A stretch of 64,000 nt of DNA. It comes from Solilutibacter silvestris (GTDB lineage Bacteria; Pseudomonadota; Gammaproteobacteria; Xanthomonadales; Xanthomonadaceae). Below the pieces are notes generated by a model. It was given only the letters and a program-made list of their open reading frames with translations, made no database searches and was not told where the DNA came from. The position numbers were made by a program, and so were the translations under genes. The stretch is taken from the NCBI RefSeq assembly GCF_002895945.1, contig NZ_NPZB01000002.1:868001-932000 (forward strand), in the 5' to 3' direction. Position 1 is the stretch's first letter. Every line of letters begins with the position of its first letter. Positions 37,701 through 64,000 of this stretch are shown piece after piece.

Positions 37701-37708
37701 GGTTCTCT

Positions 37709-37726: not shown

Positions 37727-37826
37727 GCGCCTGCCTGTCAACCTTGCCGATCTCCACGCGTTGATCTCTCCAACACGCGGCGCTGGATGCGTCCTCGCCG
37801 CGGAAATGGCAAGGAGAACGCGTTCG

Positions 37827-38435: not shown

Positions 38436-38485
38436 ATCGTCCCGATCCCGGCAATATCCGCAATCGCCAAAATCCTGGAGTGTCC

Positions 38486-38860: not shown

Positions 38861-38953
38861 TCCCCTGAGCGGATCGGGTCGGAGCTGCGCATTCATCTTG
38901 CGGTTCAGGCGATTCGCGGCACACTTGCAGCAGAGTCAGGCAAGGAGTTCCCG

Positions 38954-39574: not shown

Positions 39575-39622
39575 GCACAGTTCCGAGCCATGCTTCGGCG
39601 TGGCGTCGTACCATCGACGGTG

Positions 39623-44367: not shown

Positions 44368-45036
44368 ATGAAGGGATTTTTCTCGCGCACGCGAGCCACA
44401 GTCTGCCTGATCGCGATGGCATGTGGCGGCGCATCTGCCGCACCGCGAACTGCGGTCGCGCAACCCCCGGAACACTCGCAGGTGGGCGAAGAAGCCCGCG
44501 GTGTCATCGCGGGTGCGGTGATGGTCGCGTTGACCGAACGCCTGCACGATACCGCGCTGCGCATCCGCCTGAAAACGGTGGGGGTGAAGTCGCGCGAAGG
44601 ATCGGCGCAGAACCTTGAGGGCATCGGCGAATACATGTCGCCCAGCCACAAGGACTGGACGGTGTTCCGCTTCAATACCCGCTACGTGCCAAACGACGGC
44701 AGTGCGACCTATCCCGCGCTGGATTTCGGCCCGCAGGCCGGCGCGCCGCAGCGCGTGCTCAACGATCCAGCCTTGGTCGGCGAGCTGGAAACGCGGGTCT
44801 GCGACCAGATCGCCAAGGACAATGGCGTGCGCGACGTGCGCCTGCAGTTCGACGAGATCCAGAGCCGGCGCAGCCCCGGCGGTGCACTCGACATCAGTGC
44901 CGATGCCCGTGTCGATGTCGGTGTCGATACTGCACGCAAAACGCGCATCGAAGGCAGCTACGACGAACGTGCCAGGCGCTGGATCAACGTGAATTACCTG
45001 TTCGACATTCCGGATCGGCTGACCGGTGGGCGCTGA
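44368..45036 (+). CDS. Exported protein of unknown function
   Basis: A 222-residue protein with an N-terminal signal-like helix (TRATVCLIAMACGGASAAP) and no family I recognise. The mature part is mixed alpha/beta in appearance, with one Cys in ETRVCDQIAKDNGVRDVRLQFDEIQ. GGAAGG precedes the ATG. Its end overlaps the next (phosphopantetheinyl transferase) frame by eleven bases, so it may be the first gene of the biosynthetic transcript; no link in function is evident. Confidence 0.6.
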   Translation: MKGFFSRTRATVCLIAMACGGASAAPRTAVAQPPEHSQVGEEARGVIAGAVMVALTERLHDTALRIRLKTVGVKSREGSAQNLEGIGEYMSPSHKDWTVFRFNTRYVPNDGSATYPALDFGPQAGAPQRVLNDPALVGELETRVCDQIAKDNGVRDVRLQFDEIQSRRSPGGALDISADARVDVGVDTARKTRIEGSYDERARRWINVNYLFDIPDRLTGGR

Positions 45037-45817
45037 GCGCCGAGCCGTGATTGCCGCTGCCAACAGCGAAGACTGGTTCGCTGGCGAGCACATGGACGAT
45101 CTCCTTGCATTGTTCCCGACGGTGGAACAGTTCACGGCGACCCCGCGCGTGATCGCGATCACCGACCTGCGCGCCTGGCGTGGCCAGGCATGGCGCTTGT
45201 ATCCACTGGTGTCGCCGGCCTTGCGCGAGCGCGCCGGGCGTCTGAACAATCCGCTCGAACGCGAACGACGTTTGCTTGCATATGCCTTGCATCGCATGGT
45301 GGTCGCGTTGGCGCTCGGTCGCGATGCCGATCGCGTCGAGGTCGGCCGGATGGCATCGGGAATGCCGATGGTCGCCGGCTTGCCGAACGTGGCGACCAGC
45401 CTCAGTCATGCCGACGATTTCCTCGCGATCGCGGTTGCGCGCGACGTCGGCCTGGTTGGTGTCGACATCGAAGCGATGGATCGCGTGGCCTTGCTTGATG
45501 GCCTCGCTGCCGACGTGCTGCATGCGCAGGAATGCGCCGGCGACGAGGCGCTGATCGATGTCTGGGTGCGCAAGGAAGCCGTGCTGAAAGCGATCGGCAG
45601 CGGCCTCTCGATCGACATGAACACGTTTCTCAGCCGCCAGGGAATCGCCGTGAACGGCTTGCCCGCGGCAACCGGCCTGAGCGCGTGGTCCTTGCGCGTA
45701 TTTGCCGGTCGCGCCCGCCTCGGGTTCAGCGCGGCCACGCCTGATGGGGTGCTGGTACGGCTCGATCCCGGAACTGTCGATGTCGTATCACTTCGGGAGC
45801 GGGTGGCATGGATATGA
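45026..45817 (+). CDS. 4'-phosphopantetheinyl transferase (Sfp type)
   Basis: Transfers phosphopantetheine from CoA to carrier-protein Ser. Of up to 263 residues, the core is clear: SLSHADDFLAIAVARDVGLVGVDIEAMDR, with the Mg-binding GVDIE, then DVWVRKEAVLKAIGSGL (W-x-KEA motif). The frame opens with GTG 45026 inside the previous gene; GTG 45047 or ATG 45092 are possible starts. It lies directly upstream of the sugar transferase and NRPS/PKS genes, which contain four carrier domains, so it is likely the dedicated activator. Confidence 0.9.
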   Translation: MGAERRAVIAAANSEDWFAGEHMDDLLALFPTVEQFTATPRVIAITDLRAWRGQAWRLYPLVSPALRERAGRLNNPLERERRLLAYALHRMVVALALGRDADRVEVGRMASGMPMVAGLPNVATSLSHADDFLAIAVARDVGLVGVDIEAMDRVALLDGLAADVLHAQECAGDEALIDVWVRKEAVLKAIGSGLSIDMNTFLSRQGIAVNGLPAATGLSAWSLRVFAGRARLGFSAATPDGVLVRLDPGTVDVVSLRERVAWI

Positions 45818-45840
45818 CTTGACAGGCGCGGCACGGCAAG

Positions 45841-45854
45841 CGGACGATCGTCCG
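45841..45854. promoter_or_regulatory. Perfect 14-base palindrome upstream of the sugar transferase
   Basis: CGGACGATCGTCCG is a perfect palindrome in the 129-base gap between the phosphopantetheinyl transferase and the sugar transferase gene. It is a candidate operator of the biosynthetic operon. A TTGACA at 45819 lies near but has no matching -10. Confidence 0.35.
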
Positions 45855-45922
45855 GTTGTCGAAGTCCCGTGGCCAGGCGATTGGAACGCTGCGGCACGGG
45901 CATGGAGTGGTTCGGTATTGGT

Positions 45923-45938
45923 CTGAAATGGATTTCAG
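45923..45938. promoter_or_regulatory. Dyad overlapping the sugar transferase ribosome-binding site
   Basis: CTGAAAT and ATTTCAG form a perfect inverted repeat around GG. Its right arm runs into CAGGAG, the ribosome-binding site of the sugar transferase ATG at 45947. It could act as an operator or as an RNA hairpin hiding the site. Confidence 0.4.
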
Positions 45939-45946
45939 GAGTAGTC

Positions 45947-47338
45947 ATGGCAACGCCAGGGAAAAGCGGCCCATCAAAGGTTTTCTTCCTTTGGTTTTTT
46001 GAACTCGCATTGTTGGTCGGCTGCGTCCGGCTCTCGGGATCGGTGCGTTTCATGCACGATCCGGCGGGGTATCTCGAATTTTCGAACGGACTACCCTGGC
46101 GCGCAGCCTTGTTCGCGCTGGTGCTGTGCGTGTCGATGACAGCCTTCGGGTTGCATCACGTTTATCTGCGCAAGAACCGCTTCGGATTCATCCTGCGCGA
46201 GCTCTACGCCTTCCTGTTCGGCGGCGTGGCGCTCCTGGTCATCTATTACTTGTTCCCTGATGCCTACATCGGTCGCGGCGTGTTGATCGCGTCGCTGCTG
46301 CTGGGCTTCATCGGCGTACTGACATTGCGGATGGTCTGGAGCACGGTCTACGCATCGCCGACGCTCAAGCATCGCGTGCTGGTACTCGGCGCAGGGGAAA
46401 CCGCCAGCTTCCTCGAACGGCGGATGCGGCGCGCCAATGATCGGCGCAATTTCCGTGTCATCGGCTACGTGCCGATCGCCGACGAAGAGATCAAGATCGA
46501 TTCCAGCCTGCTGGTCCGTGGCGAAGGCGGTGTCGACCAGGTTGCAAGCCTGCTCGATGCCGACGAAATCCTGGTGGCATTGGAAGACGCCCACCACGGA
46601 ATCCACATGGAATCACTGCTGGCGGCGATCGAGCGCGGCGTGCGCGTGTGCGACCTGCCGACCTTCGTCGAGCGCGAAGCCGGGATGATCACGCTCAGTC
46701 GCCTCGATCCGTCATGGCTGGTGTTCTCGCACGGCTTCGACCATTCATTGCCGCGGCGCCTGAACAAGCGTGCGTTCGACGTCATCTTCGCATCGCTGAT
46801 GCTGGTGCTTGCCATGCCACTGATGTTGCTGACGGCGTTGGCGATCCGCCTGGAATCGAAGGGACCGATCCTGTACCAGCAGATGCGCGTCGGCTTTCAT
46901 GGCGCGAATTTCAGCGTGATCAAGTTCCGCAGCATGCGCGTCGATGCCGAGAAGGATGGCGTCGCGCAATGGGCCAAGCGCGACGACGACCGGGTCACGC
47001 GCGTCGGTCGCTTCATCCGCAAGACCCGTCTTGATGAACTTCCCCAGCTGGTCAACGTGCTGCGTGGCGAGATGAGCCTGGTCGGGCCGCGTCCTGAGCG
47101 CCCGCAGTTCGTTGATTCGCTGAATGAACAGGTTCGTTACTACAGCATGCGCCACAGCGTGCTGCCGGGCCTCACCGGCTGGGCGCAATTGCGCTATCCA
47201 TATGGCGCATCGGTGCGCGACGCCGAGGAAAAGCTGCGTTTCGACCTGTTCTACGTCAAGAACCACACCTTCTTCTCCGACCTCAGCATCCTGGTGCAGA
47301 CGGTGGAAGTGGTACTGATGGGCAAGGGAGCACGTTGA
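45947..47338 (+). CDS. EpsB/WcaJ-type undecaprenyl-phosphate sugar transferase
   Basis: Polyisoprenyl-phosphate hexose-1-phosphate transferase that would load the first sugar on undecaprenyl phosphate. About 463 residues: four or five N-terminal membrane helices, a CoA-binding-like domain ([19 protein letters not shown]), a re-entrant helix and the bacterial sugar transferase domain with [77 protein letters not shown]. It resembles the group found with exosortase/PEP-CTERM exopolysaccharide loci (TIGR03013 type). The ATG at 45947 follows CAGGAG; the longer frame lacks membrane-segment logic. It is 36 bases from the oxygenase gene. Confidence 0.88.
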
Positions 47339-47374
47339 CACGGACTGCATCGGCCGGGGGGTCGACGGGGAGGG

Positions 47375-48286
47375 ATGGTGATGGCAACAACGACACACGA
47401 CATGGAGACTTGGGTCGACGTCGACTGGGCGAAGTTCGATCCCTGGCGGATCCAGCCGCTGCGCCACCATGTGCAGGATCATCCGCTGATGCAGATGGAT
47501 GCGCTGCTGGCATTGGCGCAACGCCTGGACGCGGCCGGCAGCGTGCGCACGCATTCCGATTCGGCCAAGGCGGGCACGCCGTTCAATTCCGCGCCTGAGC
47601 TGTTCCCCAATGGCACCAATCCGGTCGAGACCTTGCGCAATCTCGCGCGGGCGCAGGCATGGATGTCGTTGCTCAATATCCAGAAGGATCCGCTCTATCG
47701 CACGCTGGTGCGCGGCGTGCTCGACGAACTGCAACCGGAGATCGATGACTGCGATCCCGGCATGAGCTATCGCGGCGGCTGGATCTTCGTGACGTCACCG
47801 AACGCGGTGACGCCGTACCATTTCGATGCCGAGCACAATTTCATCCTGCAGGTGCAGGGCAGGAAGCGCGTCTACGTCTGGGCGCACGATGACGTCGAAG
47901 TCGCCAGCGAGCAGGCGCGCGACCTGTTCCACCTCAATCACGAACGTTACCTGCTGCGCTGGCGCGATGCCTTCCGCGAGCGCGCCCAGGTCATCGACCT
48001 GCAACCGGGGCAGGGCGCCTACATGCCGTCGACCAGCCCGCACATGGTCGAGAACGGCGATGGCCCCTCGGTCACGGTGAGCTTCACCTACTACACCGAC
48101 GCGACGCGCGAGAAGTCGCGGCTGCATGCCGGGCATGGTGCGTTGCGCAAATTGGGATTGCAGCCGTCGCCGATCGGGCAGTCGGGATTGTCGGATGCCT
48201 TGGGAACACTGCTGCTGAAACTGCGTGGCGACTATCGCGACAAGGCCGCGCACGCGCGCGACGCCTATGCCGAGGAGGCAGCGTGA
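47375..48286 (+). CDS. JmjC/cupin-like Fe(II)-dependent oxygenase
   Basis: A 303-residue cytosolic protein with a cupin_8/JmjC-like core. H149-x-D151 in TPYHFDAEHNFILQVQG and H223 in STSPHMVENGDG form the expected iron triad; K164 in GRKRVYVW could bind 2-oxoglutarate. The GTG of the following PKS-NRPS gene overlaps its stop by four bases, so translation is coupled. A hydroxylase acting on the growing or finished product is the best guess. Two ATG codons (47375, 47381) are possible starts after a GGGAGGG site. Confidence 0.8.
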   Translation: MVMATTTHDMETWVDVDWAKFDPWRIQPLRHHVQDHPLMQMDALLALAQRLDAAGSVRTHSDSAKAGTPFNSAPELFPNGTNPVETLRNLARAQAWMSLLNIQKDPLYRTLVRGVLDELQPEIDDCDPGMSYRGGWIFVTSPNAVTPYHFDAEHNFILQVQGRKRVYVWAHDDVEVASEQARDLFHLNHERYLLRWRDAFRERAQVIDLQPGQGAYMPSTSPHMVENGDGPSVTVSFTYYTDATREKSRLHAGHGALRKLGLQPSPIGQSGLSDALGTLLLKLRGDYRDKAAHARDAYAEEAA

Positions 48287-51200
48287 ACCCCCGCGCCACC
48301 GGCACCACGAACATGATCGCGGTATCGCCGCTGCGTGGCGCGCGCAGCGATCGCGCCGAAACACTGTCGGCATCGTTGGTCGATGCTTTCCTCGTCCACG
48401 TTCGCCAGCGACCCGGGGCCACCGCCATCCGTGATGGCGAGCGCTGCCTCGATTACGCGCAACTGGATGCCATCTCCGCTGCCGTCGCTGCCGGATTGCG
48501 CGAACGCGGCGTCGGCCATGGCGACATTGTCGCACTCGACGCCCGGCGCGGCGCTGATGCGTTGATCGCGATGCTGGCTATCCTGCGTTGCGGCGCGGCT
48601 TACCTGCCACTGGATCCGGCGCAGCCGATGGCGCGACTGGCGACGATCCTGGCGAATGCCAATGTGCGCCTGTGCCTGGTGTCGTTGGCGGGTAACACCA
48701 CGATCCGCTTGCCCGATGCCATCACGAAAGTGGCGATCGAGGATTGCGCGATCGCGACTGCCGTAGATGCCGATGTCCAGCGCAGCGGCGAAGACCTCGC
48801 TTACGTGATGTTCACCTCCGGCTCGACCGGAACACCAAAAGGTGTGTGCATTCCCGATCGTGCGATTGTCGGATTGGTGTGCGATGTCGACTTCATCGCC
48901 CTGGATGCGGGCAGTGTGTTCCTGCAGGCGGCACCGCTCGGTTTCGATGCATCGACCCTGGAAATCTGGGGGGCGCTGCTCAATGGCGGTCAGGTGGTGA
49001 TCCATCCCGAAGCGGTGCCGACCGCTGCAGGCCTGGGCGAGACAATTCGCCGCCATGGCATCACCCACCTCTGGCTCACTGCGGCGTTGTTCAACAGCGT
49101 GGTCGATGACGATCCGCATCAGCTGCATGGCGTGCGGCAGTTGTTCAGCGGCGGCGAAGCGTTGTCATTGCACCATGTGCGGCGGATGCGCGCGGCGGAA
49201 CCGGATGTTGCCTTGTTCAATGGCTATGGTCCGACCGAATGCACGACCTTCGCGGTCACCCATGCCATCACCGATGTTGCCGATGGTGCGCACAGTGTGC
49301 CGATCGGCCACGCGATCGATCGTGCGCGGCTGTTCGTTGTCGATGGCGATGGACAACCCGTTCGCGATGGCGAGCAGGGGGAATTGTGGATTGCCGGCAG
49401 CGGTGTGGCATCGGGGTATCTGGGGCGCGCGGACCTGACCGTGGAACGTTTCGTGGCAGCGCCGGATGGCATCGGCATGGCTTATCGCAGTGGCGATCAG
49501 GTGCGTGTCAACGAGACTGGTTGTATCGAATTCTGCGGTCGCTTCGACCAGCAGGTGAAAGTTCGCGGGTTCCGCATCGAGCTGGGCGAGATCGAAGCCG
49601 TGCTCGGTGCGGTTCCCGGGATATGCAATGCCGCCGTCACCGCGCCGGAAACCGTGCACGGCGAACGCCGCCTCGTCGCCTATCTGCAAGCGCAAGACGG
49701 AAAGAACGTGGATGTGGAGGCGATCCGCACGCAACTCGCAGGCACGCTGCCGGACTACATGGTGCCGCTGCGCTACGTGGTGCTTGAACGGTTTCCCGTC
49801 ACGGCCAATGGCAAGCTGGATCGCGCCGCGCTGCCGCCACCCGACCGCACTCGGCCCGAGATCGCGACGCCGCATGTCGCGCCGCGTGGCGACCGCGAAA
49901 TGGCAATCGCACGAGCCATGGGCGAATTGCTCGATATCGATGGCGTCGGCCGCGACGATAGTTTCTTCGATCTCGGTGGAAGCTCGCTGCTGGCCGCACG
50001 ACTGGTCGCGATGTTGAAGCACGACGGAATCCTGCCGCTGTCGGCATCGCCAGGTCACGTCTTCAGTCATCCGGCGCCGGCATTGCTGGCTGCCCATTTC
50101 GAATCGTCGCGACAACCGCAGGCACAGCCCGCGCAACCGGCAGCAACACGCAACGGTTCGGAAGCGATCGCCATCATCGCAATGGCCGGACGTTTCCCCG
50201 GCGCCGTGGATGTCGAAGCATTCTGGTCGATGTTGTGCGAAGGCCGCGAAGGCATCACCCGCTTCGATCGCGCGGCGCTCGATCCTTCCATTCCGGACAC
50301 GCTGCGCAACGATCCCGACTACGTGCCTGCACGCGGCGTGATCGCTGGCGTCGAGCAGTTCGATGCGGCCTTCTTCGGGATTGGTGCGCCGGAAGCGGAG
50401 GTGATGGATCCGCAGCAACGCATCGCGCTGGAGCTGGCGTGGGAATGCATGGAACGCGGCGGCCATGCCCCCGGTGACGAAGCCGATGGCGATGTCGGCG
50501 TGTTCGCCGGCATGTATAACGCCAGCTATTTCCAGAAACACGTGTCGCAGCACCCCGATCGCATCGCGCGCGTCGGCGAATTCCAGACGATGCTCGGCAA
50601 CGAGAAGGACTACATCGCCACCCGTGTCGCCCACAAGCTCGGGCTGACTGGTCCGGCGATCAGCATCCATACCGGCTGCTCGACCTCGTTGGTGGCGATC
50701 TGCCAGGCAGTGGAAAGCCTGCGCGCCGGGCAGTGCCGGATGGCCTTGGCCGGTGGTGTGTCGGTGACGTGCCCGAGCAACAGCGGCTACCTGCACCAGG
50801 AAGGCAGCATGCTGTCGCCGGATGGCCATACCCGCAGTTTCGATGCGAAATCGGCGGGCACGGTGTTCAGCGATGGCGCGGCGATGGTGTTGCTGAAGCG
50901 GCTTGCCGATGCGCAGGCCGATGGTGACCCAATCCACGCGGTGATCCGCGGCGTCGGGCTGAGCAACGATGGCGCGCAACGCGCCAGCTTCACCGCGCCA
51001 AGCGCGGCGGGCCAAGCGCGTGCGATCCGCATGGCCCACCGTGATGCCGGCGTCGATCCGCGCAGCATCGGCTATATCGAGGCGCACGGCACCGCGACAC
51101 CGATCGGCGATCCGATCGAGATCGAGGGACTGGCGCTGGCATTCACCGAATACACGCAGGACACCGGCTTCTGCACGATTGGCTCTCTCAAGAGCAATGT

Positions 51201-54200: not shown

Positions 54201-54933
54201 TGAAGTGGTCACCGGATTCCGCGCCCACCCTGCTGGAACACAAGGACTGTTTGGTATCCGCGCCGATCTCGCCACCTACGGCAAGGTGGTCGGCGGCGGA
54301 TTCCCGATCGGCGTGATCGCAGGCAAGCGCGACTACATGGATGCGCTCGATGGCGGCGACTGGCAGTTCGGCGACGACTCGGTGCCGTCAGTGGGTGTCA
54401 CCTATTTCGCCGGCACTTTCGTGCGCCACCCACTGGCGCTCGCCGCTGCGGCTGCCGTGTTGAAGCACCTCAAGGCACAGGGCCCGGAGCTGCAGGTGAG
54501 ACTGAACCAGCGCGTGGCCACCTTCGTCGATGATCTCAACCGTCATTGCGCGGCGGTCGGCGCGCCGGTCGCAGTGCGTCATTTCGCCTCGGTGTGGAAG
54601 ACCTTCTTCCGCGAAGACCACGCGTTGCAGGATCTGTTGTTCGCGATGATGCGCAGTCGCGGCATCCACATCCTCGACAATTTTCCGTGTTTCTTCACCA
54701 CCGCGCACAGCGAAGCCGATTTCGCCCGGATCGCCGAGGCCTTCAAGGCCTCGATCGACGAATTGCAGGACGCCGGATTCCTGCCAAAACCCAAGGCGAC
54801 TGCGCAAACGGTGATGGATGCCAGCGCACCCAGGGTCGCCGGCGCGCGCCTGGGGCGCGATCCGCAAGGGCAGCCGGCGTGGTATGCGCCCGACCCCGAA
54901 ACGCCGGGACAGTACGTCAAGGTGGAGGTGTAA
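48283..54933 (+). CDS. Hybrid PKS-NRPS: A-PCP-KS-AT-ACP-aminotransferase
   Basis: A 2216-residue megasynthase. Domains: adenylation (about 25-520; core FTSGSTGTPKG near 178), PCP (DSFFDLGGSSLL, Ser near 568), ketosynthase (about 625-1045; HTGCSTSL Cys near 798, EAHGTATPIGDP, SNVGH), acyltransferase (about 1145-1440; GHSIGEF Ser near 1237, HAFH near 1333, as in malonyl-CoA-specific ATs), ACP (EAGLDSLTL, Ser near 1559), a Gln/Met-rich linker and a PLP class III aminotransferase (about 1700-2170; Lys in YGKVVGGGF near 2000), as in the mycosubtilin/iturin synthetases. The pocket residues read D-A-L-W-F-G-G-T-F-K against GrsA, close to valine codes. There is no upstream C domain and no KR, DH or ER. 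GTG start, GAGGAG six bases before it. Predicted product: a 3,4-diamino-5-methylhexanoyl thioester. Confidence 0.92.
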   Translation: MNPRATGTTNMIAVSPLRGARSDRAETLSASLVDAFLVHVRQRPGATAIRDGERCLDYAQLDAISAAVAAGLRERGVGHGDIVALDARRGADALIAMLAILRCGAAYLPLDPAQPMARLATILANANVRLCLVSLAGNTTIRLPDAITKVAIEDCAIATAVDADVQRSGEDLAYVMFTSGSTGTPKGVCIPDRAIVGLVCDVDFIALDAGSVFLQAAPLGFDASTLEIWGALLNGGQVVIHPEAVPTAAGLGETIRRHGITHLWLTAALFNSVVDDDPHQLHGVRQLFSGGEALSLHHVRRMRAAEPDVALFNGYGPTECTTFAVTHAITDVADGAHSVPIGHAIDRARLFVVDGDGQPVRDGEQGELWIAGSGVASGYLGRADLTVERFVAAPDGIGMAYRSGDQVRVNETGCIEFCGRFDQQVKVRGFRIELGEIEAVLGAVPGICNAAVTAPETVHGERRLVAYLQAQDGKNVDVEAIRTQLAGTLPDYMVPLRYVVLERFPVTANGKLDRAALPPPDRTRPEIATPHVAPRGDREMAIARAMGELLDIDGVGRDDSFFDLGGSSLLAARLVAMLKHDGILPLSASPGHVFSHPAPALLAAHFESSRQPQAQPAQPAATRNGSEAIAIIAMAGRFPGAVDVEAFWSMLCEGREGITRFDRAALDPSIPDTLRNDPDYVPARGVIAGVEQFDAAFFGIGAPEAEVMDPQQRIALELAWECMERGGHAPGDEADGDVGVFAGMYNASYFQKHVSQHPDRIARVGEFQTMLGNEKDYIATRVAHKLGLTGPAISIHTGCSTSLVAICQAVESLRAGQCRMALAGGVSVTCPSNSGYLHQEGSMLSPDGHTRSFDAKSAGTVFSDGAAMVLLKRLADAQADGDPIHAVIRGVGLSNDGAQRASFTAPSAAGQARAIRMAHRDAGVDPRSIGYIEAHGTATPIGDPIEIEGLALAFTEYTQDTGFCTIGSLKSNVGHLVIAAGAAGMIKTALALRENVIPGTLHFTAANPAIDFASTPFVANAEADTWRCSPSPRRAGVSSFGVGGTNAHVVMEQAPDAVPSDAAAGVQLLQLSACSPQALQQASERLAMHLADHPDANLADVAWTLRSGRKVFAYRRAVVADGRDAAIRDLQLPASTPTRMAGGDTGVVLLFPGQGATYPGMGRALYRDHQVFRDAIDACAEHLGDRVGEDLRTLLFSDDTDALRPTSRMQPATFALEYALGRLWQSLGVMPVAMLGHSIGEFTAATLAGVFSLDDAIGLVARRAALMQSQPAGAMLGVRLSEAELLARLPVDLDLAAVNGPRACVVSGRADMIEAFVETLAKEQIACTPLRTSHAFHSRMMEPALASFADAVATCSRNAPSLPIVSSLTGMLLTGDEAISVDYWVNQLRAPVQYSRAAACALALPAVRALLETGPRNTLSQLAKQQRFGDGQFALASLADNTGAENATLLQAAAALWCAGIAVDIDSLDARQQRHRVELPTYPFERKTYWLPAPTAALRAPVAIHEESSMPASHPAPVAQPAAPNTEVIARIREVFEDVSGIDMAGMSDDANFVEAGLDSLTLTQIALQLQKSFGTKISFRQLMSEYSSLTRLGAALGATVTPARVEPQASVPTVAAAVTATVASIAVPTASTDLQQLMQQQMQLMQRQLELLGAAPVARSEAAMPQTSAVMMPRAPMAAATTAQPQSSDQAEAEALAHTRYDVKKAFGAIARIDNGASSELGPKQRDRLDAFIQRYVARTQASKDYTQRHRGHLADPRVVNGFKPMLKEITYQIVMSRSQGAHLTDLDGNDYVDALNGFGMSLFGWQPDFVLDAVRTQLDAGYEIGPQHVLAGEVAELFCEITGNDRAALCNTGSEAVLGALRIARTVTGRDTVAVFSGAYHGIIDEMIVRGTRTHRAVPAAPGILRNTAEHVVVLDYGTEESAQWLREHASELAAVLVEPVQSRRPDFQPVEFLKELRAITDAAGALLVFDEVVTGFRAHPAGTQGLFGIRADLATYGKVVGGGFPIGVIAGKRDYMDALDGGDWQFGDDSVPSVGVTYFAGTFVRHPLALAAAAAVLKHLKAQGPELQVRLNQRVATFVDDLNRHCAAVGAPVAVRHFASVWKTFFREDHALQDLLFAMMRSRGIHILDNFPCFFTTAHSEADFARIAEAFKASIDELQDAGFLPKPKATAQTVMDASAPRVAGARLGRDPQGQPAWYAPDPETPGQYVKVEV

Positions 54934-54935
54934 CG

Positions 54936-57900
54936 ATGAATGTCGAGACCCCCATGGCGCCGACAGCGGTTGCCCACGATCCATTCGCGCAGGCCGTCTT
55001 GCGGGTGGTGCCGACCACCGAGGCGCAACGCGAGATCTGGCTGGTCGATCGCCTCGATCGCGAAGCATCGCTGGCGTACAACGAAGCGCTGTCGATGCGC
55101 ATCGACGGGCCGTTCGATCACGCCGCCTTGAAGCAGGCGCTGGGTGGGTTGGTGCAACGCCACGACGTGTTGCGTTCGGTGCTGTCGGGCGATGGCCAGA
55201 CTCTGTGCGTGCTGGAACACGCGACGACCGCGATGGCGTTCGGGAACCTGTTGGAGCTCGGCGCGGCGGAGCAGGGTGCACGCATCGCCCAGGCCGAGAT
55301 CGAATCGGTGTCGGTTCCCTTTGACCTGCAGGACGGACCGCTGTTCCGTGCCACGCTGTTCCGTCTCGGGCCACAGTCGCATCGGTTGTTGCTCAGTGCG
55401 CATCACGCAATATGCGACGGCTGGTCGTGGTGGGTGCTCGTCCGCGATCTCGGCGCACTCTACGGTGCCGCACTGGAGGATCGTCCGGCGTCGTTGCCGC
55501 CGGCTGAATCGTTCGCCGATCATGCGCTGGCCGAAGCCACACAATCCGGTCACGCCCATGCCGGCGATGAAGGTTACTGGCACCAGCGTTTCAGCGATGG
55601 CGTGCCGGTGCTGGAACTTCCACTCGACCTGCCGCGTCCGCATACCCGCCATTTCGCCTCGCGCCGCGAAGAGCTCGAACTTCCACCCGAGTTGTTGCAT
55701 GCCTTGCGCGAAACGGCGGCAAAGCAAGGCTGCAGTCTGTTCTCGTTGATGCTGTCGGCATTCGCATTGCTGGTTGCGCGCATTGCCGGGCAGGACGACG
55801 TGGTGATCGGCATTCCCAGCGCGGGGCAACCCGCGAGCGGGAAGCTTGCACTGGTCGGGCATTGCGCCAACACCTTGCCGATGCGTTTCGCGCTACGCAA
55901 GGACGAGGCCTTCGCCACCTTCCTGGCGCACGCCAACAATGATCTCCTGGATGCGGTCGAACATCGCGGCTGCACGCTCTCGACCCTGTTGCAACACCTG
56001 GCGATCGCCCGCGACCCGTCGCGGGTGCCGTTGGCGTCCTTGTTGTTCAACATCGACCAGAGCCTGGAGGGCGAAAGCGCCGCGTTCGCCGGCGCACGCA
56101 TCGATTGCCGTGGCGTGGCGCGCATCGCCGACAATTTCGAACTGTCGCTCAACGCCGTGCAGACACCGGCCGGCATGCGCCTGGAGTGCCAGTACGCGGC
56201 GTCGCTGCTGCATGGGAGCACCGTCCGACGCTGGCTGCGTGCTTATCGCATGCTGCTGCGCGGAGTCGTCGAACACATTGATCGCCCCGGCAGTGCCTAT
56301 GGCTTGCTGGACGATGACGACGTGCACGAACTCGCCACGCTGTCACCGCATCCGACGTCGTTCCATCGCGAACGATTGATGCATCAGCATTTCGAAGCGA
56401 GTTGCGATCGCCGGCCCGATGCCGTCGCCGCGCACGATGGCCGACGCGGCATTCGCTATGGCGAGCTTGATCGCGAAGCCAACCGCATCGCCCACCTGCT
56501 GTCCGTGCAAGGCGTCAAGCCAGGCGATCTGGTCGGCATCGCGGTCGATCGCGGCATCCCGATGCTGGCAGCACTGCTCGGCATCCTCAAGGCTGGCGCC
56601 GGCTACATCCCGCTCGATCCCGCCTTCCCGGCAGTGCGCCTGCAACACATGCTGGACGATGGCCGCCCGTCCGCAGTGCTCACGACAGATGTGCTTGCAA
56701 TGGCATTGCCGCTGCATGGCCAACGCATCGTGCTGCTCGACGACGCAGCGCTTTCCGCGCAACCCGACACGCGCCTGCAATCGCCGGGCGCTGCCGATCC
56801 GGAAGCGATCGCCTACGTGATCTATACCTCCGGTTCGACCGGCACGCCGAAGGGCGTGGAGATTCCGCATCGCGCCGTCGCCAATTTCCTCGCCAGCATG
56901 GCCGAACGACCTGGCCTGCATCAGGATGACGTGCTGGTCGCGGTGACCACGCTGTCGTTCGACATCGCCGTGCTCGAACTGATGTTGCCACTATGCGTCG
57001 GTGCACAGGTCGTCATCGCCGATCGCGAGACCACGCTCGATGGTGGCGCGCTTGCCGCCTGCATCGCCGAACATCGGGCGACCGTGATGCAGGCGACACC
57101 GGCAACCTGGCGCACGCTGATCGAAGCCGACTGGGTGGGCAGTGCAGGCTTCAGGGTCCTGTGTGGCGGTGAATCGTTGCCAGCGACGCTGGCGGCGCAA
57201 TTGCTGGCACGCAGCCGCGAAGTGTGGAACGTCTATGGCCCGACCGAAACCACGGTGTGGTCGACTTGCGCGCGAATCGCGCCGCCTGCACGCGGCATGC
57301 TGCCTGATATCCACATCGGTCGACCGATCGCCAATACCAGCGTGTGGATCCTCGACGATGCAAACCTGCCTTGCCTGCGCGGCATCCCCGGCGAACTGTG
57401 CATTTCCGGCGAAGGCCTGGCGCGCGGCTATCGCAACCAACCGGCGCTGACCGCCGATCGTTTCATCGACTGGAACGGCCCGGACGGGCGCCTGCGCCTG
57501 TATCGCACGGGCGATCGCGCACGCTGGCGTGACGACGGCATGCTCGAACACCTCGGACGCCTCGACCACCAGATCAAATTGCGCGGCTATCGCATCGAAC
57601 TGGGTGAAATCGAAACACGCTTGGCCAGCCATCCCGATGTGCAATCGGCGGTGGTGCTGGTGCGCGAGGAAAACGAAGGCGATGCGCGACTGCTTGCCTA
57701 TGTGGTGATGGTGCCGGGACGCGAGATCGAACCCGTGCAGCTGAAGACGCATCTGCGTGGATCGCTTCCGGATTACATGATCCCGCAGCACGTCATGGTG
57801 CTGGCGCAGTGGCCGCTGACCGCGAACGGCAAGATCGATCGCAAGGCATTGCCGCTGCCGGGTGCATTTGCGAATGAATGCACGACATCGGCTGCAGCGG

Positions 57901-59846
57901 AGTCGCCACTGCAGGAACGCCTGCTGGAGGCCTTCAAATCCACGCTCAAGCTCGGGATGCTCGGGATCGATGACGACTTCTTCCTGTCCGGCGGGCACTC
58001 GCTGCTGGCCGCGCAACTCACCACGCGGCTCAAAAAGGAATTCGCGCTGCATTTGTCGCAACGCACGCTGTTCGATGCACCGACGGTGCGCAAGTTGTCG
58101 CGCATCATCGATGGCAACGCCGCAGCGAACACGGAATCGCAATCCGGCATCATTGCCAGGCGCGAGCACCGCGAATGGGCGCCGCTGAGCATCTTCCAGC
58201 AGCGACAGGCGTTGATCCACGAATTCCATCCGGAAGTGCTGGCCTACAGCTTGCCGTCCGGGCACGTGCTGAATGGTGCGCTCGATCTCGAGCATTTTCG
58301 CCAGGCATTGACGACAGTGGTGAATCGGCAGACCGTGCTGCGCACCGGATTCGAGCGTCGCGGCGACGATCTTGTGCAAGTATTGCGCAGTGGGCTGGAA
58401 TCGCGCGTGCTGGAACCGCTGATCGATCTCACCCATCTCGCGCCCGCGCAGCGCCAGGATGCACTTGAAACCGACATCAGGACGCTGGTCGCGCGACCGT
58501 TCGAATCCCTGGCCGATGCGCCGCTGTTCCGTTCGCGCCTGTACCGCATGGCTGACGACGAACACGTCTGGTTCTTCATGCCGCACCAGATCATCTGGGA
58601 TGGCTGGTCGTTCGATCTGTTGTATGCGGAATTGTCCGAATGCTATGCCGCGTTGTGCGCGGGGCGCGAGCCGTCGCTACCGGCGTTGCCGGTGGATTAC
58701 GGCGATTACGCCATCTGGCACAACGCCTGGATGGAGAGCGATGCTTATCGCGGCCAACGCGAGCAATGGCGGCAATGGATGTGCATGCCCAATGCACGCG
58801 GTGGCTGGCCGCGCGCGCTGCCGACCGATCGCCCGCGGCCGCGGTTGATGACGGGGACCGCCACCGCGATTCCGCTGGAACTGTCGCCGGCCCTGTCGCA
58901 GTCGCTGCGCGAGACGGCGAAATCGCTGGATTCGACCGTGTTCGTGGTGATGCTGGCAGCCTGGTTCGTGGCGCTCGCGCACTACGGCGGCGACCCGGAT
59001 GTCGTGGTCGGAACACCCGTGCGTGGACGCCATCACGCCGAAACCGAACCGTTGATGGGACACATCGTCAACTTGTTGCCGCTGCGCATGGACGTGCCGA
59101 TGACGGGCGTATTTGCCGATGTCGTGCGCCTCGCCAAGTCGTCGCTGCTCGACAGTCTCTCGGCACCCGACATCCAGTTGGAAGACATCGCGGAGATGCG
59201 CTCCGGACTTCCCGGTGTCGCCAGCAGCATCCTCTACCACGCGCAGTTCTCCTTCCAGGACATCCGCGATCGCATCACCCATTGGGGCGAACTCTCGCAT
59301 CGCCGTTTCGACATCGACCAGCCGAGCATCGCCGAGGATCTCAATCTGTGGGTGGTCGATCGCGGCGACGGCGGCCTGCAGGGAACACTGCTCTACAACA
59401 GGGAATTGCTTGAGGAACGGACCGCACGTCGCATCGCCGGGTATTACCAACATCTGCTGGCGGAATTGGCCGGCGATCCGCGGCAGGCCATCGAAGCCGC
59501 ACTACATTCACTCAACGACACGAGCCACGACATGTCCGCAACCATGGAACACGCTTCCGCTGCACCATCGGCGCTGGCCACCGTCACGCGCCTGGACTAT
59601 CTCCAGGCACTTTGGGAGCGTCACCTGGGCGTCAGCGTCGGCCCCGGTGACAATTTCTTCGATCTTGGCGGTAGTTCAATGCAGGCGGTGCGCGTCCTCG
59701 TCGAACTCGCCCGGGATACCGGCGTCAAGCTCAGGTTGCCGCAACTTGCGGTGCAGACGGCGGCGGAAATCGCGGCACAATTGCCCGAACGCAACATCGA
59801 ACCGGCAAACTCCGGCTGGTTCAAGCGTATCTTCGGGCGGAAATAA
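54936..59846 (+). CDS. Non-ribosomal peptide synthetase: C-A-PCP-C-PCP
   Basis: A 1636-residue NRPS starting two bases after the first synthetase, with GGTGGAGG before the ATG. Domains: condensation (HHAICDGWS near 156), adenylation (core YTSGSTGTPKG near 629; pocket D-I-L-Q-L-G-V-V-W-K, close to glycine codes), PCP (FFLSGGHSLLA, near 1020), a second condensation domain (about 1078-1500) and a second PCP (FFDLGGSSMQA, near 1578). The second condensation domain has HQIIWDG where HHxxxDG is usual: the catalytic second His is Gln. No A domain feeds the last PCP and there is no thioesterase. The longer open frame beginning at 54546 lies inside the previous gene. Confidence 0.92.
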   Translation: MNVETPMAPTAVAHDPFAQAVLRVVPTTEAQREIWLVDRLDREASLAYNEALSMRIDGPFDHAALKQALGGLVQRHDVLRSVLSGDGQTLCVLEHATTAMAFGNLLELGAAEQGARIAQAEIESVSVPFDLQDGPLFRATLFRLGPQSHRLLLSAHHAICDGWSWWVLVRDLGALYGAALEDRPASLPPAESFADHALAEATQSGHAHAGDEGYWHQRFSDGVPVLELPLDLPRPHTRHFASRREELELPPELLHALRETAAKQGCSLFSLMLSAFALLVARIAGQDDVVIGIPSAGQPASGKLALVGHCANTLPMRFALRKDEAFATFLAHANNDLLDAVEHRGCTLSTLLQHLAIARDPSRVPLASLLFNIDQSLEGESAAFAGARIDCRGVARIADNFELSLNAVQTPAGMRLECQYAASLLHGSTVRRWLRAYRMLLRGVVEHIDRPGSAYGLLDDDDVHELATLSPHPTSFHRERLMHQHFEASCDRRPDAVAAHDGRRGIRYGELDREANRIAHLLSVQGVKPGDLVGIAVDRGIPMLAALLGILKAGAGYIPLDPAFPAVRLQHMLDDGRPSAVLTTDVLAMALPLHGQRIVLLDDAALSAQPDTRLQSPGAADPEAIAYVIYTSGSTGTPKGVEIPHRAVANFLASMAERPGLHQDDVLVAVTTLSFDIAVLELMLPLCVGAQVVIADRETTLDGGALAACIAEHRATVMQATPATWRTLIEADWVGSAGFRVLCGGESLPATLAAQLLARSREVWNVYGPTETTVWSTCARIAPPARGMLPDIHIGRPIANTSVWILDDANLPCLRGIPGELCISGEGLARGYRNQPALTADRFIDWNGPDGRLRLYRTGDRARWRDDGMLEHLGRLDHQIKLRGYRIELGEIETRLASHPDVQSAVVLVREENEGDARLLAYVVMVPGREIEPVQLKTHLRGSLPDYMIPQHVMVLAQWPLTANGKIDRKALPLPGAFANECTTSAAAESPLQERLLEAFKSTLKLGMLGIDDDFFLSGGHSLLAAQLTTRLKKEFALHLSQRTLFDAPTVRKLSRIIDGNAAANTESQSGIIARREHREWAPLSIFQQRQALIHEFHPEVLAYSLPSGHVLNGALDLEHFRQALTTVVNRQTVLRTGFERRGDDLVQVLRSGLESRVLEPLIDLTHLAPAQRQDALETDIRTLVARPFESLADAPLFRSRLYRMADDEHVWFFMPHQIIWDGWSFDLLYAELSECYAALCAGREPSLPALPVDYGDYAIWHNAWMESDAYRGQREQWRQWMCMPNARGGWPRALPTDRPRPRLMTGTATAIPLELSPALSQSLRETAKSLDSTVFVVMLAAWFVALAHYGGDPDVVVGTPVRGRHHAETEPLMGHIVNLLPLRMDVPMTGVFADVVRLAKSSLLDSLSAPDIQLEDIAEMRSGLPGVASSILYHAQFSFQDIRDRITHWGELSHRRFDIDQPSIAEDLNLWVVDRGDGGLQGTLLYNRELLEERTARRIAGYYQHLLAELAGDPRQAIEAALHSLNDTSHDMSATMEHASAAPSALATVTRLDYLQALWERHLGVSVGPGDNFFDLGGSSMQAVRVLVELARDTGVKLRLPQLAVQTAAEIAAQLPERNIEPANSGWFKRIFGRK

Positions 59847-59863
59847 CCTGCGAGGAGGGAGTC

Positions 59864-60655
59864 TTGTCGGGGGGCACAACGCCGCAGATCGAACCACTGC
59901 TGTTGCCGCAGGGCGACGGGCATCTGTTTGCTGTCCGTCATCGCTGCGCGATGCCGCTGCGTGCCCGCGTCCTGCTGTGCCCGCCATTGCTGCACGAACA
60001 TGCCCGCAGCTACCGCTTCTTCGCCCAGCTTGCCGAACACTGGGCGCGCCACGGCATCGAAGTGATCCGCTTCGATTATTCCGGCAGCGGCGACTCCAGC
60101 GGATCGACACGCGATTTCGCCAGCGCAGGCGCGATCCGCGATATTCGTCATGTTTGGGATGCGCTTGTTCCGGTGGAAGAGGGAGTTCCGCGCATCATCT
60201 GCGGCGTGCGCATGGGCAGCCTGTTCGCCGCCCACGCAATTGCCGGTGGACTCGACGCCGACATGGCCTGGTGGTGGCAGCCGGCGCTTTCCGGCGCGGC
60301 ATGGGTCGATGCGCTCGAAATGATCGACGCGCGCGAGCGGCAGTCGCCCAGTCGCTTTCCACTTCGCACTGGGCCACAGGCACGCGTAGGCGAACTGATG
60401 GGTTACGACCTGGATCCGCAGTGCATTGGCGACCTGCGTCGACTGCAATGGCCGCTGCTTTCCTTGCCAACGACCTGCTTGCTGGAAAGCGACGGCGCGC
60501 TGCAATCGTGGATGCGGGCCGTTGACGTGATTCGCTTGTCACTGGCATTCGATGCGTGGCCATGGCAAGTCGATTTCGAAGCCATCATCCCGGTGCGCCT
60601 GGCAGATCCGGCGAGTGAACGCCTGTTTTCGCGGCTGCAGGAGGCCACGACATGA
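59864..60655 (+). CDS. Alpha/beta-hydrolase-fold protein without a usual nucleophile
   Basis: A 263-residue protein with the alpha/beta-hydrolase pattern: LLCPPLLHEHARSYRFFAQLAEHWARHGIEVIRFDYSGSGDSSG and a nucleophile elbow that reads CGVRMGSLFAA, Arg where Ser is expected. Exosortase-associated hydrolase-2-like proteins have a similar GxRxGA elbow, as far as I recall. The start is TTG at 59864, three bases after GAGGAGGGA. Coupled to the next gene by a four-base overlap. It may be a structural or non-classical partner of the NRPS. Confidence 0.7.
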   Translation: MSGGTTPQIEPLLLPQGDGHLFAVRHRCAMPLRARVLLCPPLLHEHARSYRFFAQLAEHWARHGIEVIRFDYSGSGDSSGSTRDFASAGAIRDIRHVWDALVPVEEGVPRIICGVRMGSLFAAHAIAGGLDADMAWWWQPALSGAAWVDALEMIDARERQSPSRFPLRTGPQARVGELMGYDLDPQCIGDLRRLQWPLLSLPTTCLLESDGALQSWMRAVDVIRLSLAFDAWPWQVDFEAIIPVRLADPASERLFSRLQEATT

Positions 60656-61455
60656 TGCAATTGCTGCCAGTGGGCAATGGCTATGGATTCCTCCATCGCG
60701 CCGATCCGCAGCGGCCGCCGCGTGCGACGATGCTGATGCTCAATGCCGGCCTGATCCATCGCGGCGGGCCGGCGCGCATGAACATCGAACTCGCCGATCA
60801 CCTCGCGCCCCACGGCATCGATCTGTTCCGTTTCGACTTGCCGGCAGTGGGCGATGCGCCTGCGGGCGGTGTTGACCGGCAACAGCATATCCGCCAAGCG
60901 ATGGACATCGCTGCGGCTGCCAATGGCTGTGAGCGCTTCATCGTGGGCGGCATCTGCAGCGCCGCCGATCTTGCCTGGAGGCTGCCACCACTGGATGCGC
61001 GCGTGCAGGGATTGTTGTTGCTCGATCCCTGTGCCGTGCGTGGGCTGTGGTTCCGCTGGGCGCAGTTGCAGCACTTCGCGTCGCGGCCGGTCGCGACCTG
61101 GGGTCACATGCTGCAGCGATGGTTGCGGCACGGATGGAACGACGGCGGCGCGGCGCCCGCCGGACGCGACTGGCCATCGCAGCGCGAATTCATCGACGGC
61201 AATCGCCGTATGGCGACAGCCGGAATCGCCATGTACGTGCTCTATACCGCTGGGGTCACCGAGTACTTCCTGCATCCGCGGCAGATGCACACCAGCTTCG
61301 CCGCGACCGGCAATGATCCGCGCCTGCGCCTGCGTCATCGCCCGGACATCGACCACATCCTGTTCGTTCCGCACCAACGTGCGGAAGTCCTCGACGACAT
61401 CGCTGCCTGGCTGGATGCGTGGCTGCCCGCAGCGGAATCCTCCGTTGCGGGTTGA
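60652..61455 (+). CDS. Alpha/beta-hydrolase-fold protein with Cys elbow
   Basis: A 267-residue protein, second of the pair. It has LMLNAGLIHRGGPARMNIELADHLAPHGIDLFRFDLPAVGDAP and an elbow GGICSAADLAWRLP with Cys in the Ser position, which may be a functional nucleophile. A His near the C-terminus (RPDIDHILFVPHQRAEVLDDIAAWLDAWLP) could complete a triad. CAGGAGG precedes the overlapping ATG. It is the best candidate for release or transfer of the NRPS product, as neither synthetase has a thioesterase. Confidence 0.7.
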   Translation: MMQLLPVGNGYGFLHRADPQRPPRATMLMLNAGLIHRGGPARMNIELADHLAPHGIDLFRFDLPAVGDAPAGGVDRQQHIRQAMDIAAAANGCERFIVGGICSAADLAWRLPPLDARVQGLLLLDPCAVRGLWFRWAQLQHFASRPVATWGHMLQRWLRHGWNDGGAAPAGRDWPSQREFIDGNRRMATAGIAMYVLYTAGVTEYFLHPRQMHTSFAATGNDPRLRLRHRPDIDHILFVPHQRAEVLDDIAAWLDAWLPAAESSVAG

Positions 61456-63387: not shown

Positions 63388-64000
63388 GGCGGGGGATCCA
63401 TGGGGGGGAAATTGGAAGTGGAGACCGCAACCTGGGTGGTCGCTGGTACCAGGTGGACGCTGCGCGCGAGGGAACGGCGCAATTGGACGGACACGCGATG
63501 GATGGCCGGGCGGGGATCGTTCCAGCGGTACACGTGCTCATAGGCGCCGGGCCAGTCGAGCAGTGCGGTGGTGATCGAGGCGCGCGCATGCTTCAGCGCG
63601 TTGGCATCCTCGATCCAGTTCACGCAACCCTTGCCGATGCGATAGCGACGCACCGCCGCCACCGGCAGTTCCTGCGCATCGCGCCATGCCATCTCGCAGA
63701 CGTTCACGCCGCAGCGCGCGGCGAATTCGACGTACCACCAGGCCCGCGTGTTCACTTCGAGGAGGCGGTACTCGCCATCACGTGCATCCTGCTTGAACTC
63801 GGCGCTGAAGATGCCGCGGTAATCCAATTGGTCGAGCAGGCGCATGCAGGCCATCACCGCTGGTTCGATCTCCTCCAGCGCGATGCTGCGGCAGAACGTG
63901 CTGTTGCCGAAATCGGGTGGGTGGATGCGGGTGCGCCGGCGCGCGAACAGGCCGGGATAGCGGCCGGCGCGATCGCGGAAGCCATCGACGAACACGTGGT
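63384..64000 (-). CDS. ATP-grasp protein, C-terminal part (cut by window edge)
   Basis: Open to the right edge of the window; the frame continues with His before the first GTG, so the start is outside. Over 203 residues are seen. The end of an ATP-grasp domain is clear: LDQLDYRGIFSAEFKQDARDGEYRLLEVNTRAWWYVEFAARCGVNVCEMAWRDA, with the metal-binding E-x-N (EVNTR). ATP-grasp enzymes join carboxylates to amines or thiols; the substrate is unknown. It is followed, with a four-base overlap, by the secreted beta-helix gene. Confidence 0.75.
   Translation of the reverse strand, partial: HVFVDGFRDRAGRYPGLFARRRTRIHPPDFGNSTFCRSIALEEIEPAVMACMRLLDQLDYRGIFSAEFKQDARDGEYRLLEVNTRAWWYVEFAARCGVNVCEMAWRDAQELPVAAVRRYRIGKGCVNWIEDANALKHARASITTALLDWPGAYEHVYRWNDPRPAIHRVSVQLRRSLARSVHLVPATTQVAVSTSNFPPMDPPP

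What the first reader, a model, noticed from the sequence alone, without database searches (positions are those of the whole stretch)
45026..61455. Unrecognised PKS-NRPS cluster predicted to make a diamino-acyl-glycine product
One plus-strand run encodes a PPTase, a lipid-linked sugar transferase, a JmjC-like oxygenase, A-PCP-KS-AT-ACP-aminotransferase, C-A-PCP-C-PCP and two alpha/beta-fold proteins. Read against GrsA, the two pockets are D-A-L-W-F-G-G-T-F-K (valine-like) and D-I-L-Q-L-G-V-V-W-K (glycine-like); the AT has the malonyl HAFH motif. With no KR, the beta-keto group of a Val-malonate unit would be aminated in cis, giving 3,4-diamino-5-methylhexanoyl-glycine as the scaffold. I know of no named pathway with this set.
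Basis: partly seen in the sequence, partly recalled or inferred. Interest (0 to 1): 0.85.

Follow-up and report, generated by a model that had tools for sequence, protein, structure and literature searches.

The report
Peptide-making enzymes inside a slime-polysaccharide locus
A bacterial assembly line that should join valine, malonate and glycine into a short diamino-peptide is not a lone antibiotic-type cluster: it sits inside genes that build and export a surface polysaccharide, so it probably makes a chemical decoration for that polysaccharide.

Summary
In detail: PPTase, sugar-1-P transferase, JmjC/cupin oxygenase, A-PCP-KS-AT-ACP-aminotransferase, C-A-PCP-C-PCP and two alpha/beta-hydrolase-fold proteins form one tight plus-strand run (45026-61455), with the pocket codes, malonyl AT motif and lack of a KR as stated. 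The reading as an isolated product cluster does not hold. The sugar transferase is TIGR03013 (XrtA/PEP-CTERM type), the two hydrolases are distant relatives of the exosortase-A-associated pair TIGR03101/TIGR03100, and the locus continues about 18 kb past the window into glycosyltransferase, Wzx, Wzy-like, chain-length, kinase and export genes. No exosortase was found in the genome. The aminotransferase marker (68% identity or more) is in 73 of 397 sampled genomes of the order. The export gene is over cut-off in 50 of 50 named carriers tested, within 50 kb on the same contig in 41. In the window's genus 6 of 6 carriers have the export gene, 0 of 11 non-carriers. Best reading: an EPS-dedicated PKS-NRPS making a 3,4-diaminoacyl-glycyl group, perhaps passed to the glycan by the Cys-nucleophile protein Hyd1. 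The genomic link to EPS is well supported; acceptor, transfer step and final structure are inference, and the chemistry is untested.

The parts
44368..45036 (+). Conserved small protein, probably exported (signal-peptide-like start, by eye); overlaps the PPTase start; possible first gene of the run
   Evidence: No Pfam or NCBIfam match; present at 70-75% identity in 4 same-genus loci
45026..45817 (+). 4'-phosphopantetheinyl transferase
   Evidence: PF01648 40.7 bits, cut-off 25
45869..47338 (+). Polyprenyl-phosphate sugar-1-phosphate transferase, TIGR03013 EpsB_2 (XrtA/PEP-CTERM system type)
   Evidence: 497 bits, cut-off 393
47375..48286 (+). Cupin_8/JmjC oxygenase with HFD...H metal triad, possible hydroxylase of a tethered building block
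   Evidence: PF13621/PF08007; H149, D151, H223 in 47 of 47 homologues; model pLDDT 91; nearest solved relatives by sequence JMJD5 and FIH, weak, best E 4.7e-5
48283..54933 (+). PKS-NRPS subunit 1: A1-PCP1-KS-AT-ACP-AMT
   Evidence: Pfam, motifs, code DALWFGGTFK
48397..49815 (+). A1 adenylation domain, Val-like pocket
50161..51291 (+). Ketosynthase
   Evidence: PF00109/PF02801; TGCSTS, EAHGT, GHLVIAAG
51730..52551 (+). Malonyl-type acyltransferase (GHSIG, HAFH)
53602..54567 (+). Class III (GSAM-like) aminotransferase domain; PLP lysine in YGKVVGGG
   Evidence: PF00202; mean column identity 81% over 10 sequences
54936..59846 (+). NRPS subunit 2: C1-A2-PCP2-C2-PCP3, no thioesterase, no third A domain
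56391..57833 (+). A2 adenylation domain, Gly-like pocket DILQLGVVWK
58128..59435 (+). C2 condensation domain with HQIIWDG in place of HHxxxDG (bounds approximate)
   Evidence: HQ in window, L039 and L040 only; HH in the other 72 of 75
59864..60655 (+). Hyd2, alpha/beta-hydrolase fold with Arg at the nucleophile position (probable pseudo-enzyme partner)
   Evidence: TIGR03101-like 51.8 bits, below cut-off 202.75; Arg116 in 32 of 33
60652..61455 (+). Hyd1, alpha/beta-hydrolase fold with Cys at the nucleophile position (GICSA); candidate acyl transferase
   Evidence: TIGR03100-like 39.6 bits, below cut-off 168.45; C102, D234 and H235 each in 32 of 33 and invariant in the 24 rows of A3; model and fold search
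61471..63387 (-). Choice-of-anchor Q protein with proline-rich tail, first gene of the opposite-strand EPS part
   Evidence: NF041518 35 bits, cut-off 25
63384..64000 (-). ATP-grasp-type protein of the EPS locus (continues to 64616 outside the window); the locus then runs to about 82100
   Evidence: weak NCBIfam matches; PF15632 just below cut-off

Best explanation
The run is the acyl-peptide module of an exopolysaccharide locus. Shown by sequence: a PPTase, two megasynthases with four carrier domains, and two hydrolase-fold proteins encoded inside an XrtA-type but exosortase-free EPS locus. Predicted: A1 loads valine (the JmjC-type oxygenase may hydroxylate a tethered residue); KS-AT-ACP add one malonate; with no KR, the fused aminotransferase turns the beta-ketone into an amine, giving 3,4-diamino-5-methylhexanoyl-ACP; C1-A2-PCP2 add glycine; C2-PCP3 receive the chain or, in relatives with A3, add a second glycine. 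With no thioesterase, release is inferred to go through the Hyd2/Hyd1 pair: Hyd1 takes the acyl chain on Cys102 and passes it to a sugar of the lipid-linked repeat unit begun by the TIGR03013 transferase; the decorated unit is then flipped, polymerised and exported by the Wzx, Wzy-like, TIGR03007 and TIGR03027 proteins. EPS dedication is the well-supported part; acceptor, transfer enzyme and final structure are inferred.
For: EPS genes continue past the window: TIGR03007 309 bits (cut-off 279), TIGR03027 195 (180) and TIGR03013 497 (393) over cut-off, with TIGR03087, 03088, 03097, 03016, 03018 and 03006 matches below cut-off, plus PF01943 and PF04932 (Wzx, Wzy_C). Among 100 relatives all 12 carriers of the close aminotransferase have the export gene over cut-off against 19 of 88 others (Fisher 1.3e-7); same genus 6 of 6 against 0 of 11. 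In the complete Dyella jiangningensis genome PPTase, EpsB2, JmjC, PKS and NRPS are followed by a GT2, a deacetylase, a Wzy-like ligase and two GT4 genes, with Hyd1/Hyd2 next to the outer-membrane, kinase, chain-length and export genes. Gene order differs between loci: the next recognised gene after the NRPS is Hyd2 in 30, GT2 in 23, deacetylase in 9 of 72, so the link outlives rearrangement. Hyd1-like and Hyd2-like genes lie within 50 kb of an export gene in 11 of 11 genomes tested (in one, G118, that export match is partial and below cut-off). Every domain is under purifying selection against two sister species (pN/pS 0.08-0.44).
Against: No chemistry; the acyl acceptor is unknown. Relatives share ancestry, so the counts are not independent. 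In G029 assembly line, Hyd1/Hyd2 and JmjC lie about 0.7 Mb from the export gene. In 7 of 50 genomes the export gene is on another contig (short contigs or near contig ends for most), and so it is in 3 of the 6 same-genus carriers (G002, G014, G015, fragmented assemblies). One of 7 genomes with a distant aminotransferase lacks the export gene (G090), and 13 of 81 relatives with neither close nor distant aminotransferase have it, so the EPS machinery does not need this assembly line. Hyd1 and Hyd2 score far below the TIGR03100/03101 cut-offs. C2 lacks the second motif His here. The structure search of Hyd1 gives hydrolases, many of them esterases; none of the 50 rows shown is named an acyltransferase.
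Confidence: 0.6

Rival explanations
1. Free diffusible natural product: the line makes and releases a diaminoacyl-glycine compound (hydrolysed by Hyd1), and sits near EPS genes only for shared regulation or island-like inheritance.
For: PKS-NRPS lines of this kind usually make small molecules (general knowledge); G029 keeps assembly line, Hyd1/Hyd2 and JmjC about 0.7 Mb away from the export gene; no sugar acyltransferase of a known family was seen in the run; stieleriacines, N-acylated tyrosines, are assigned as likely products of synthase genes lying beside EPS and PEP-CTERM genes (PMC7293339, passages read).
Against: No exporter or resistance gene among the genes of the run; the EPS link holds in 41 of 50 genomes through rearrangements; in the genus both are present or both absent.
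Confidence: 0.22
2. The product is a cap, primer or lipid/protein anchor of the polysaccharide (one per chain) rather than a repeat-unit decoration, perhaps standing in for the missing exosortase-sorted proteins.
For: 45 of 50 carriers tested have no PF09721 exosortase match, nor has the own genome, so this EPS system has mostly lost its usual protein partner.
Against: Carriers with strong exosortase matches keep the line as well (G137, G118, G145); nothing shows one copy per chain.
Confidence: 0.1
3. Degenerate or silent cluster: the third A domain is lost and C2 lacks its motif His, so the line is decaying in this genus.
For: No A3 in the window and HQ motif.
Against: pN/pS 0.08-0.44 in all domains against two sister species; final modules with a short C2-PCP3 gap and no A domain recur in 21 of 72 complete relatives; carrier serine GGSSM kept.
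Confidence: 0.05

Closest known systems
XrtA/PEP-CTERM exopolysaccharide loci (TIGR03013, 03007, 03027; associated hydrolases TIGR03100/03101, ligase TIGR03098, decarboxylase TIGR03099)
   Same: Sugar transferase, chain-length and export genes over cut-off; hydrolase pair with the same nucleophile-position residues (Cys in Hyd1, Arg in Hyd2) as the one over-cut-off pair found, in G137
   Different: No exosortase found in the genome; no TIGR03099 over cut-off in the own genome; a PKS-NRPS is present
MycA/ItuA-type synthases (mycosubtilin, iturin; PMC3039948 and PMC3547906, passages read)
   Same: KS plus carrier plus GSAM-like class III aminotransferase acting on a beta-keto thioester before NRPS modules
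   Different: Loaded by an A domain with an amino-acid pocket instead of a fatty-acid ligase; own cis AT; no thioesterase; embedded in an EPS locus. Microcystin McyE was also considered, from recall only
N-acyl amino acid synthases linked to PEP-CTERM/exosortase loci (Craig et al. 2011, as cited in PMC7293339; the 2011 paper itself is not held)
   Same: Acyl/amino-acid chemistry encoded beside EPS and PEP-CTERM genes
   Different: Single-enzyme N-acyl transfer, not a modular assembly line
Acyl modification of lipid-linked EPS intermediates (WcaF, PrmO; PMC11340318, passages read)
   Same: Acylation of a lipid-linked sugar is reported or proposed to be needed for repeat-unit assembly
   Different: OafA/WcaF-type acyltransferases; no peptide or polyketide assembly line

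Membership tests
Hybrid type I PKS-NRPS assembly line | A, carrier, KS, AT, C domains with intact active-site motifs | tested here: met
   exception: C2 motif HQ instead of HH
Hybrid type I PKS-NRPS assembly line | Release domain (TE/R) or trans release enzyme | tested here: inconclusive
   No TE in either subunit; Hyd1 is only a candidate
MycA-like beta-aminating PKS | GSAM-like aminotransferase domain after KS and carrier | tested here: met
   PF00202, GSAM-type models, conserved lysine
MycA-like beta-aminating PKS | Fatty-acid loading by acyl ligase | tested here: not met
   A1 has an amino-acid-type pocket code (codes recalled)
XrtA/PEP-CTERM EPS system | Exosortase XrtA | tested here: not met
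   TIGR03109 and PF09721 without a match in the genome
XrtA/PEP-CTERM EPS system | System-type sugar transferase, chain-length and export proteins | tested here: met
   TIGR03013, TIGR03007, TIGR03027 over cut-off
XrtA/PEP-CTERM EPS system | PEP-CTERM sorted proteins | not tested
   no search was made for the PEP-CTERM motif
Exosortase-A-associated hydrolases 1 and 2 | Score over curated cut-off | tested here: not met
   39.6 of 168.45 and 51.8 of 202.75 bits
Exosortase-A-associated hydrolases 1 and 2 | Adjacent pair with Cys / Arg at the nucleophile position as in over-cut-off members | tested here: met
   (compared with one over-cut-off pair only, in G137)
Named MIBiG cluster | Close match to a characterised cluster | not testable with these tools
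   MIBiG not held; among the 25 best of 191 and of 103 NCBIfam matches shown for the two megasynthases no full-length NRPS/PKS model reached its cut-off

The most novel reading that the evidence does not exclude
A modular PKS-NRPS line dedicated to decorating a bacterial exopolysaccharide: it builds a beta-aminated Val-malonate-Gly(-Gly) diaminoacyl group and hands it, through a Cys-nucleophile/pseudo-hydrolase pair, to lipid-linked sugars, giving a positively charged peptide-bearing EPS; spread through Lysobacterales and, by MAG labels, into Burkholderiales and Rhodocyclaceae, mostly without an exosortase.
Probability: 0.42. Interest if true: 0.85.

Novelty: new variant of a known kind. Interest (0 to 1): 0.62.

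Why it matters
If right, a thiotemplate assembly line of the kind known for antibiotics and lipopeptides serves to modify a structural polysaccharide. It would give a first role to a biosynthetic type whose marker is present in 73 of 397 sampled genomes of the order, suggest what the two hydrolase-like proteins of XrtA-type EPS loci do (acyl transfer), and give a testable source of cationic, diamino-acid-bearing EPS. It would also mean that genome miners may be filing such clusters as orphan antibiotics.

Tried and rejected
Exosortase-dependent system: rejected for this genome, none found. Strict replacement of the standard decarboxylase (TIGR03099) by the PKS-NRPS: not strict, 4 of 40 genomes tested hold both. 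Recent decay of the cluster: not supported. The C2 HQ motif as a shared signature of the family: rejected, 72 of 75 have HH and only window, L039 and L040 have HQ. Hyd1 structure search for a known acyltransferase: the 50 rows shown are hydrolases, many of them esterases. Literature: searches returned 0 papers; some searches returned papers that do not look relevant from the listing, except PMC7293339; one search returned PMC11340318; others (N-acyl amino acid synthase with PEP-CTERM, 17 papers, 10 listed; mycosubtilin aminotransferase, 4 papers) gave the comparisons. Haft et al. 2006 (PMC1569441, term search only) holds none of the terms peptide synthetase, ligase, hydrolase, polyketide, acyl carrier. 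A first alignment (A1) had two rows in the wrong strand (L010, L013) and was replaced by A2, which also leaves out the two distant rows from L034 and L035. Gene calling on G137 looked poor (many wrong-strand calls) and was used only for its domain hits.
Full report
What is there. The plus-strand run is real. Pfam and NCBIfam scans give a PPTase (45026-45817), a sugar-1-phosphate transferase of TIGR03013 (45869-47338, 497 bits, cut-off 393), a Cupin_8/JmjC protein (47375-48286), A-PCP-KS-AT-ACP-aminotransferase (48283-54933), C-A-PCP-C-PCP (start ATG 54936, end 59846) and two alpha/beta-hydrolase-fold proteins (59864-60655, 60652-61455). No KR, DH, ER, MT or TE family was matched. Motifs are intact except the second C domain, which reads HQIIWDG.

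Surroundings. The window is part of a 2.85-Mb genome of three contigs. I called genes on the window plus 53 kb downstream and scanned those that follow. The genes from 61471 on, most of them on the minus strand, form a polysaccharide locus that ends near 82100 in window numbering: choice-of-anchor Q protein, ATP-grasp, DnaJ-like, Wzx (PF01943), hexapeptide acetyltransferase, ElyC-like, four glycosyltransferases, two polysaccharide deacetylase-like proteins (weak matches), a Wzy_C protein, outer-membrane protein, tyrosine kinase, chain-length protein (TIGR03007, 309 bits, cut-off 279), export protein (TIGR03027, 195, cut-off 180), GalE and a second epimerase-like gene (named by eye). Several match XrtA-system models below cut-off (TIGR03087, 03088, 03097, 03016, 03018, 03006). 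XrtA (TIGR03109) and any exosortase (PF09721) gave no match in the genome. To the left lie genes that look like housekeeping genes (named by eye from the ORF list, not scanned) and an aldehyde dehydrogenase.

Relatives. A search of 100 related genomes with the aminotransferase region found 12 close copies (66-100% identity) and 7 more distant ones (47-52%) above a background of ordinary class III aminotransferases that rings in all 100. In an even sample of 397 genomes of the order, 88 had a match at E of 1e-120 or better: 73 close (68% or more), 15 distant (47-55%). A scan of genome contigs (84,980 species by the tool's description) with the alignment A2 gave 266 relatives, of which the 80 best were kept: among them Lysobacter, Pseudoxanthomonas, Rhodanobacter, Frateuria, Dyella, Luteibacter, Luteimonas, Dokdonella, Mizugakiibacter and MAGs, a few labelled Burkholderiales, Rhodocyclaceae or Rubrivivax. 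In those 80 loci (up to 10 kb each side, many cut by contig ends) tblastn found C1 in 79, A2 in 77, KS in 71, EpsB2 in 44, JmjC in 42, a DnaJ-like gene in 41, Hyd1 in 32, Hyd2 in 32, PPTase in 25.

Link to polysaccharide genes. I tested 50 of the 80 named genomes: 50 of 50 have TIGR03027 over cut-off, while 45 of 50 have no exosortase match (of the five hits G143 and G149 are weak). The export gene is on the same contig as the aminotransferase, judged by equal contig length, in 43 of 50; 41 lie within 50 kb of the locus midpoint and the other two at 51.5 and 81.8 kb. Chance for a single gene in a 4-Mb genome is about 2.5%. In the 100 relatives, all 12 close carriers have the export gene over cut-off against 19 of 88 others (Fisher p 1.3e-7); 6 of 7 with a distant copy have it (not G090), and 13 of 81 with neither. 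In the window's own genus it is 6 of 6 against 0 of 11; in 3 of those 6 (G002, G014, G015, fragmented assemblies) the two lie on different contigs. These counts are not independent of phylogeny, but gene order varies: after the NRPS the next recognised gene is Hyd2 in 30, GT2 in 23, a deacetylase in 9 and something else or nothing in 10 of 72 complete loci. In the complete Dyella jiangningensis genome (labels by blastp to window genes) the PPTase, EpsB2, JmjC, PKS and NRPS genes are followed by a GT2, a deacetylase, a Wzy-like ligase and two GT4 genes, with Hyd1/Hyd2 about 19 kb past the NRPS, between GalE and the outer-membrane, kinase, chain-length and export genes. G137, labelled Burkholderiales (L086), carries the line about 35 kb from a strong exosortase hit and about 65 kb from over-cut-off TIGR03100/03101 genes. 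Counter-example: G029, where line, Hyd pair and JmjC lie about 0.7 Mb from the export gene.

The hydrolase pair. Hyd1 has Cys102 in a G-x-C-S-A-type elbow in 32 of 33 homologues (the other, L040, is cut by a contig end there), with D234 and H235 likewise in 32 of 33; Hyd2 has Arg at the same place in 32 of 33. The one over-cut-off TIGR03100 and TIGR03101 pair found (G137) shows GLCGGA and GVRAG, so the window's pair shares that signature although it scores far below the cut-offs. Hyd1 models as an alpha/beta hydrolase (pLDDT 83), nearest to hydrolases, many of them esterases (50 rows shown). A Cys nucleophile next to a line without thioesterase suggests transthioesterification and acyl transfer; that is inference.

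Final module. In 48 of 72 complete relatives a third A domain lies between C2 and PCP3; in 21 the gap is 148-256 bp, too short for one, as in the window's sister genomes L036, L039 and L040; in 3 it is about 1.3 kb with nothing recognised. The window itself has a single AMP-binding stretch in this subunit. Where two A domains were read in the NRPS, the last is DILQ-type in 29 of 29, Gly-like by recalled codes. A1 is DA[LF]W-type in 47 of 64 and DVQF-type (Pro-like, recalled) in 10 of 64. C2 reads HQ in window, L039 and L040, HH in 72 of 75, so condensation there may be weak or absent in this subgroup. All domains are under purifying selection against two sister species (pN/pS 0.08-0.44).

Mechanism and comparison. 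[quoted passage not shown] Acylation of lipid-linked sugars needed for repeat-unit assembly is described or proposed for other EPS pathways (PMC11340318, passages read). N-acyl amino acid synthases next to PEP-CTERM loci are a looser parallel (PMC7293339, passages read). I found no paper describing a PKS-NRPS in an EPS locus; the searches were in an open-access library only, so this is weak evidence of novelty. MIBiG was not available.

Verdict. Observation confirmed, interpretation partly supported. The genomic link to EPS is the main new result; the acceptor, the transfer step and the chemistry are unproven.

Noticed in passing
window 9667-20721 (+): Single 3684-aa ORF with 12 passenger-associated-transport repeats (PF12951), a giant autotransporter-like protein.
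   Followed up: partly
window 58584-58604 (C2 motif in 54936-59846): Second C domain reads HQIIWDG; same change in L039 and L040 only, HH in the other 72 of 75.
   Followed up: yes
own genome and 45 of 50 named carriers: XrtA-type EPS genes without any exosortase match: the EPS part seems to have outlived the protein-sorting part in Lysobacterales.
   Followed up: partly
L205 and L206 (G143, Dokdonella immobilis contig), 37708-40810 and 67414-69203 in contig numbering: Small carrier-protein-sized ORFs next to A-domain-like ligases, one set with a TIGR03099 decarboxylase over cut-off, in the same region as the PKS-NRPS.
   Followed up: no
L166 (G137), ORF after hyd1 in the same frame: ORF with a condensation-domain-like AMCDGWS motif next to an over-cut-off exosortase-A hydrolase 1: C-domain chemistry may be a wider part of XrtA loci.
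   Followed up: no
window 40967-42196 (-): WXXGXW-repeat protein with a long His/Pro/Gln-rich tail (by eye).
   Followed up: no
L034, L035 (G038, G049): Distant aminotransferase-PKS lines (about 50% identity) also sit beside EpsB2-like and epimerase genes, and in L035 beside export and chain-length genes, so the EPS link may extend to a wider family.
   Followed up: partly
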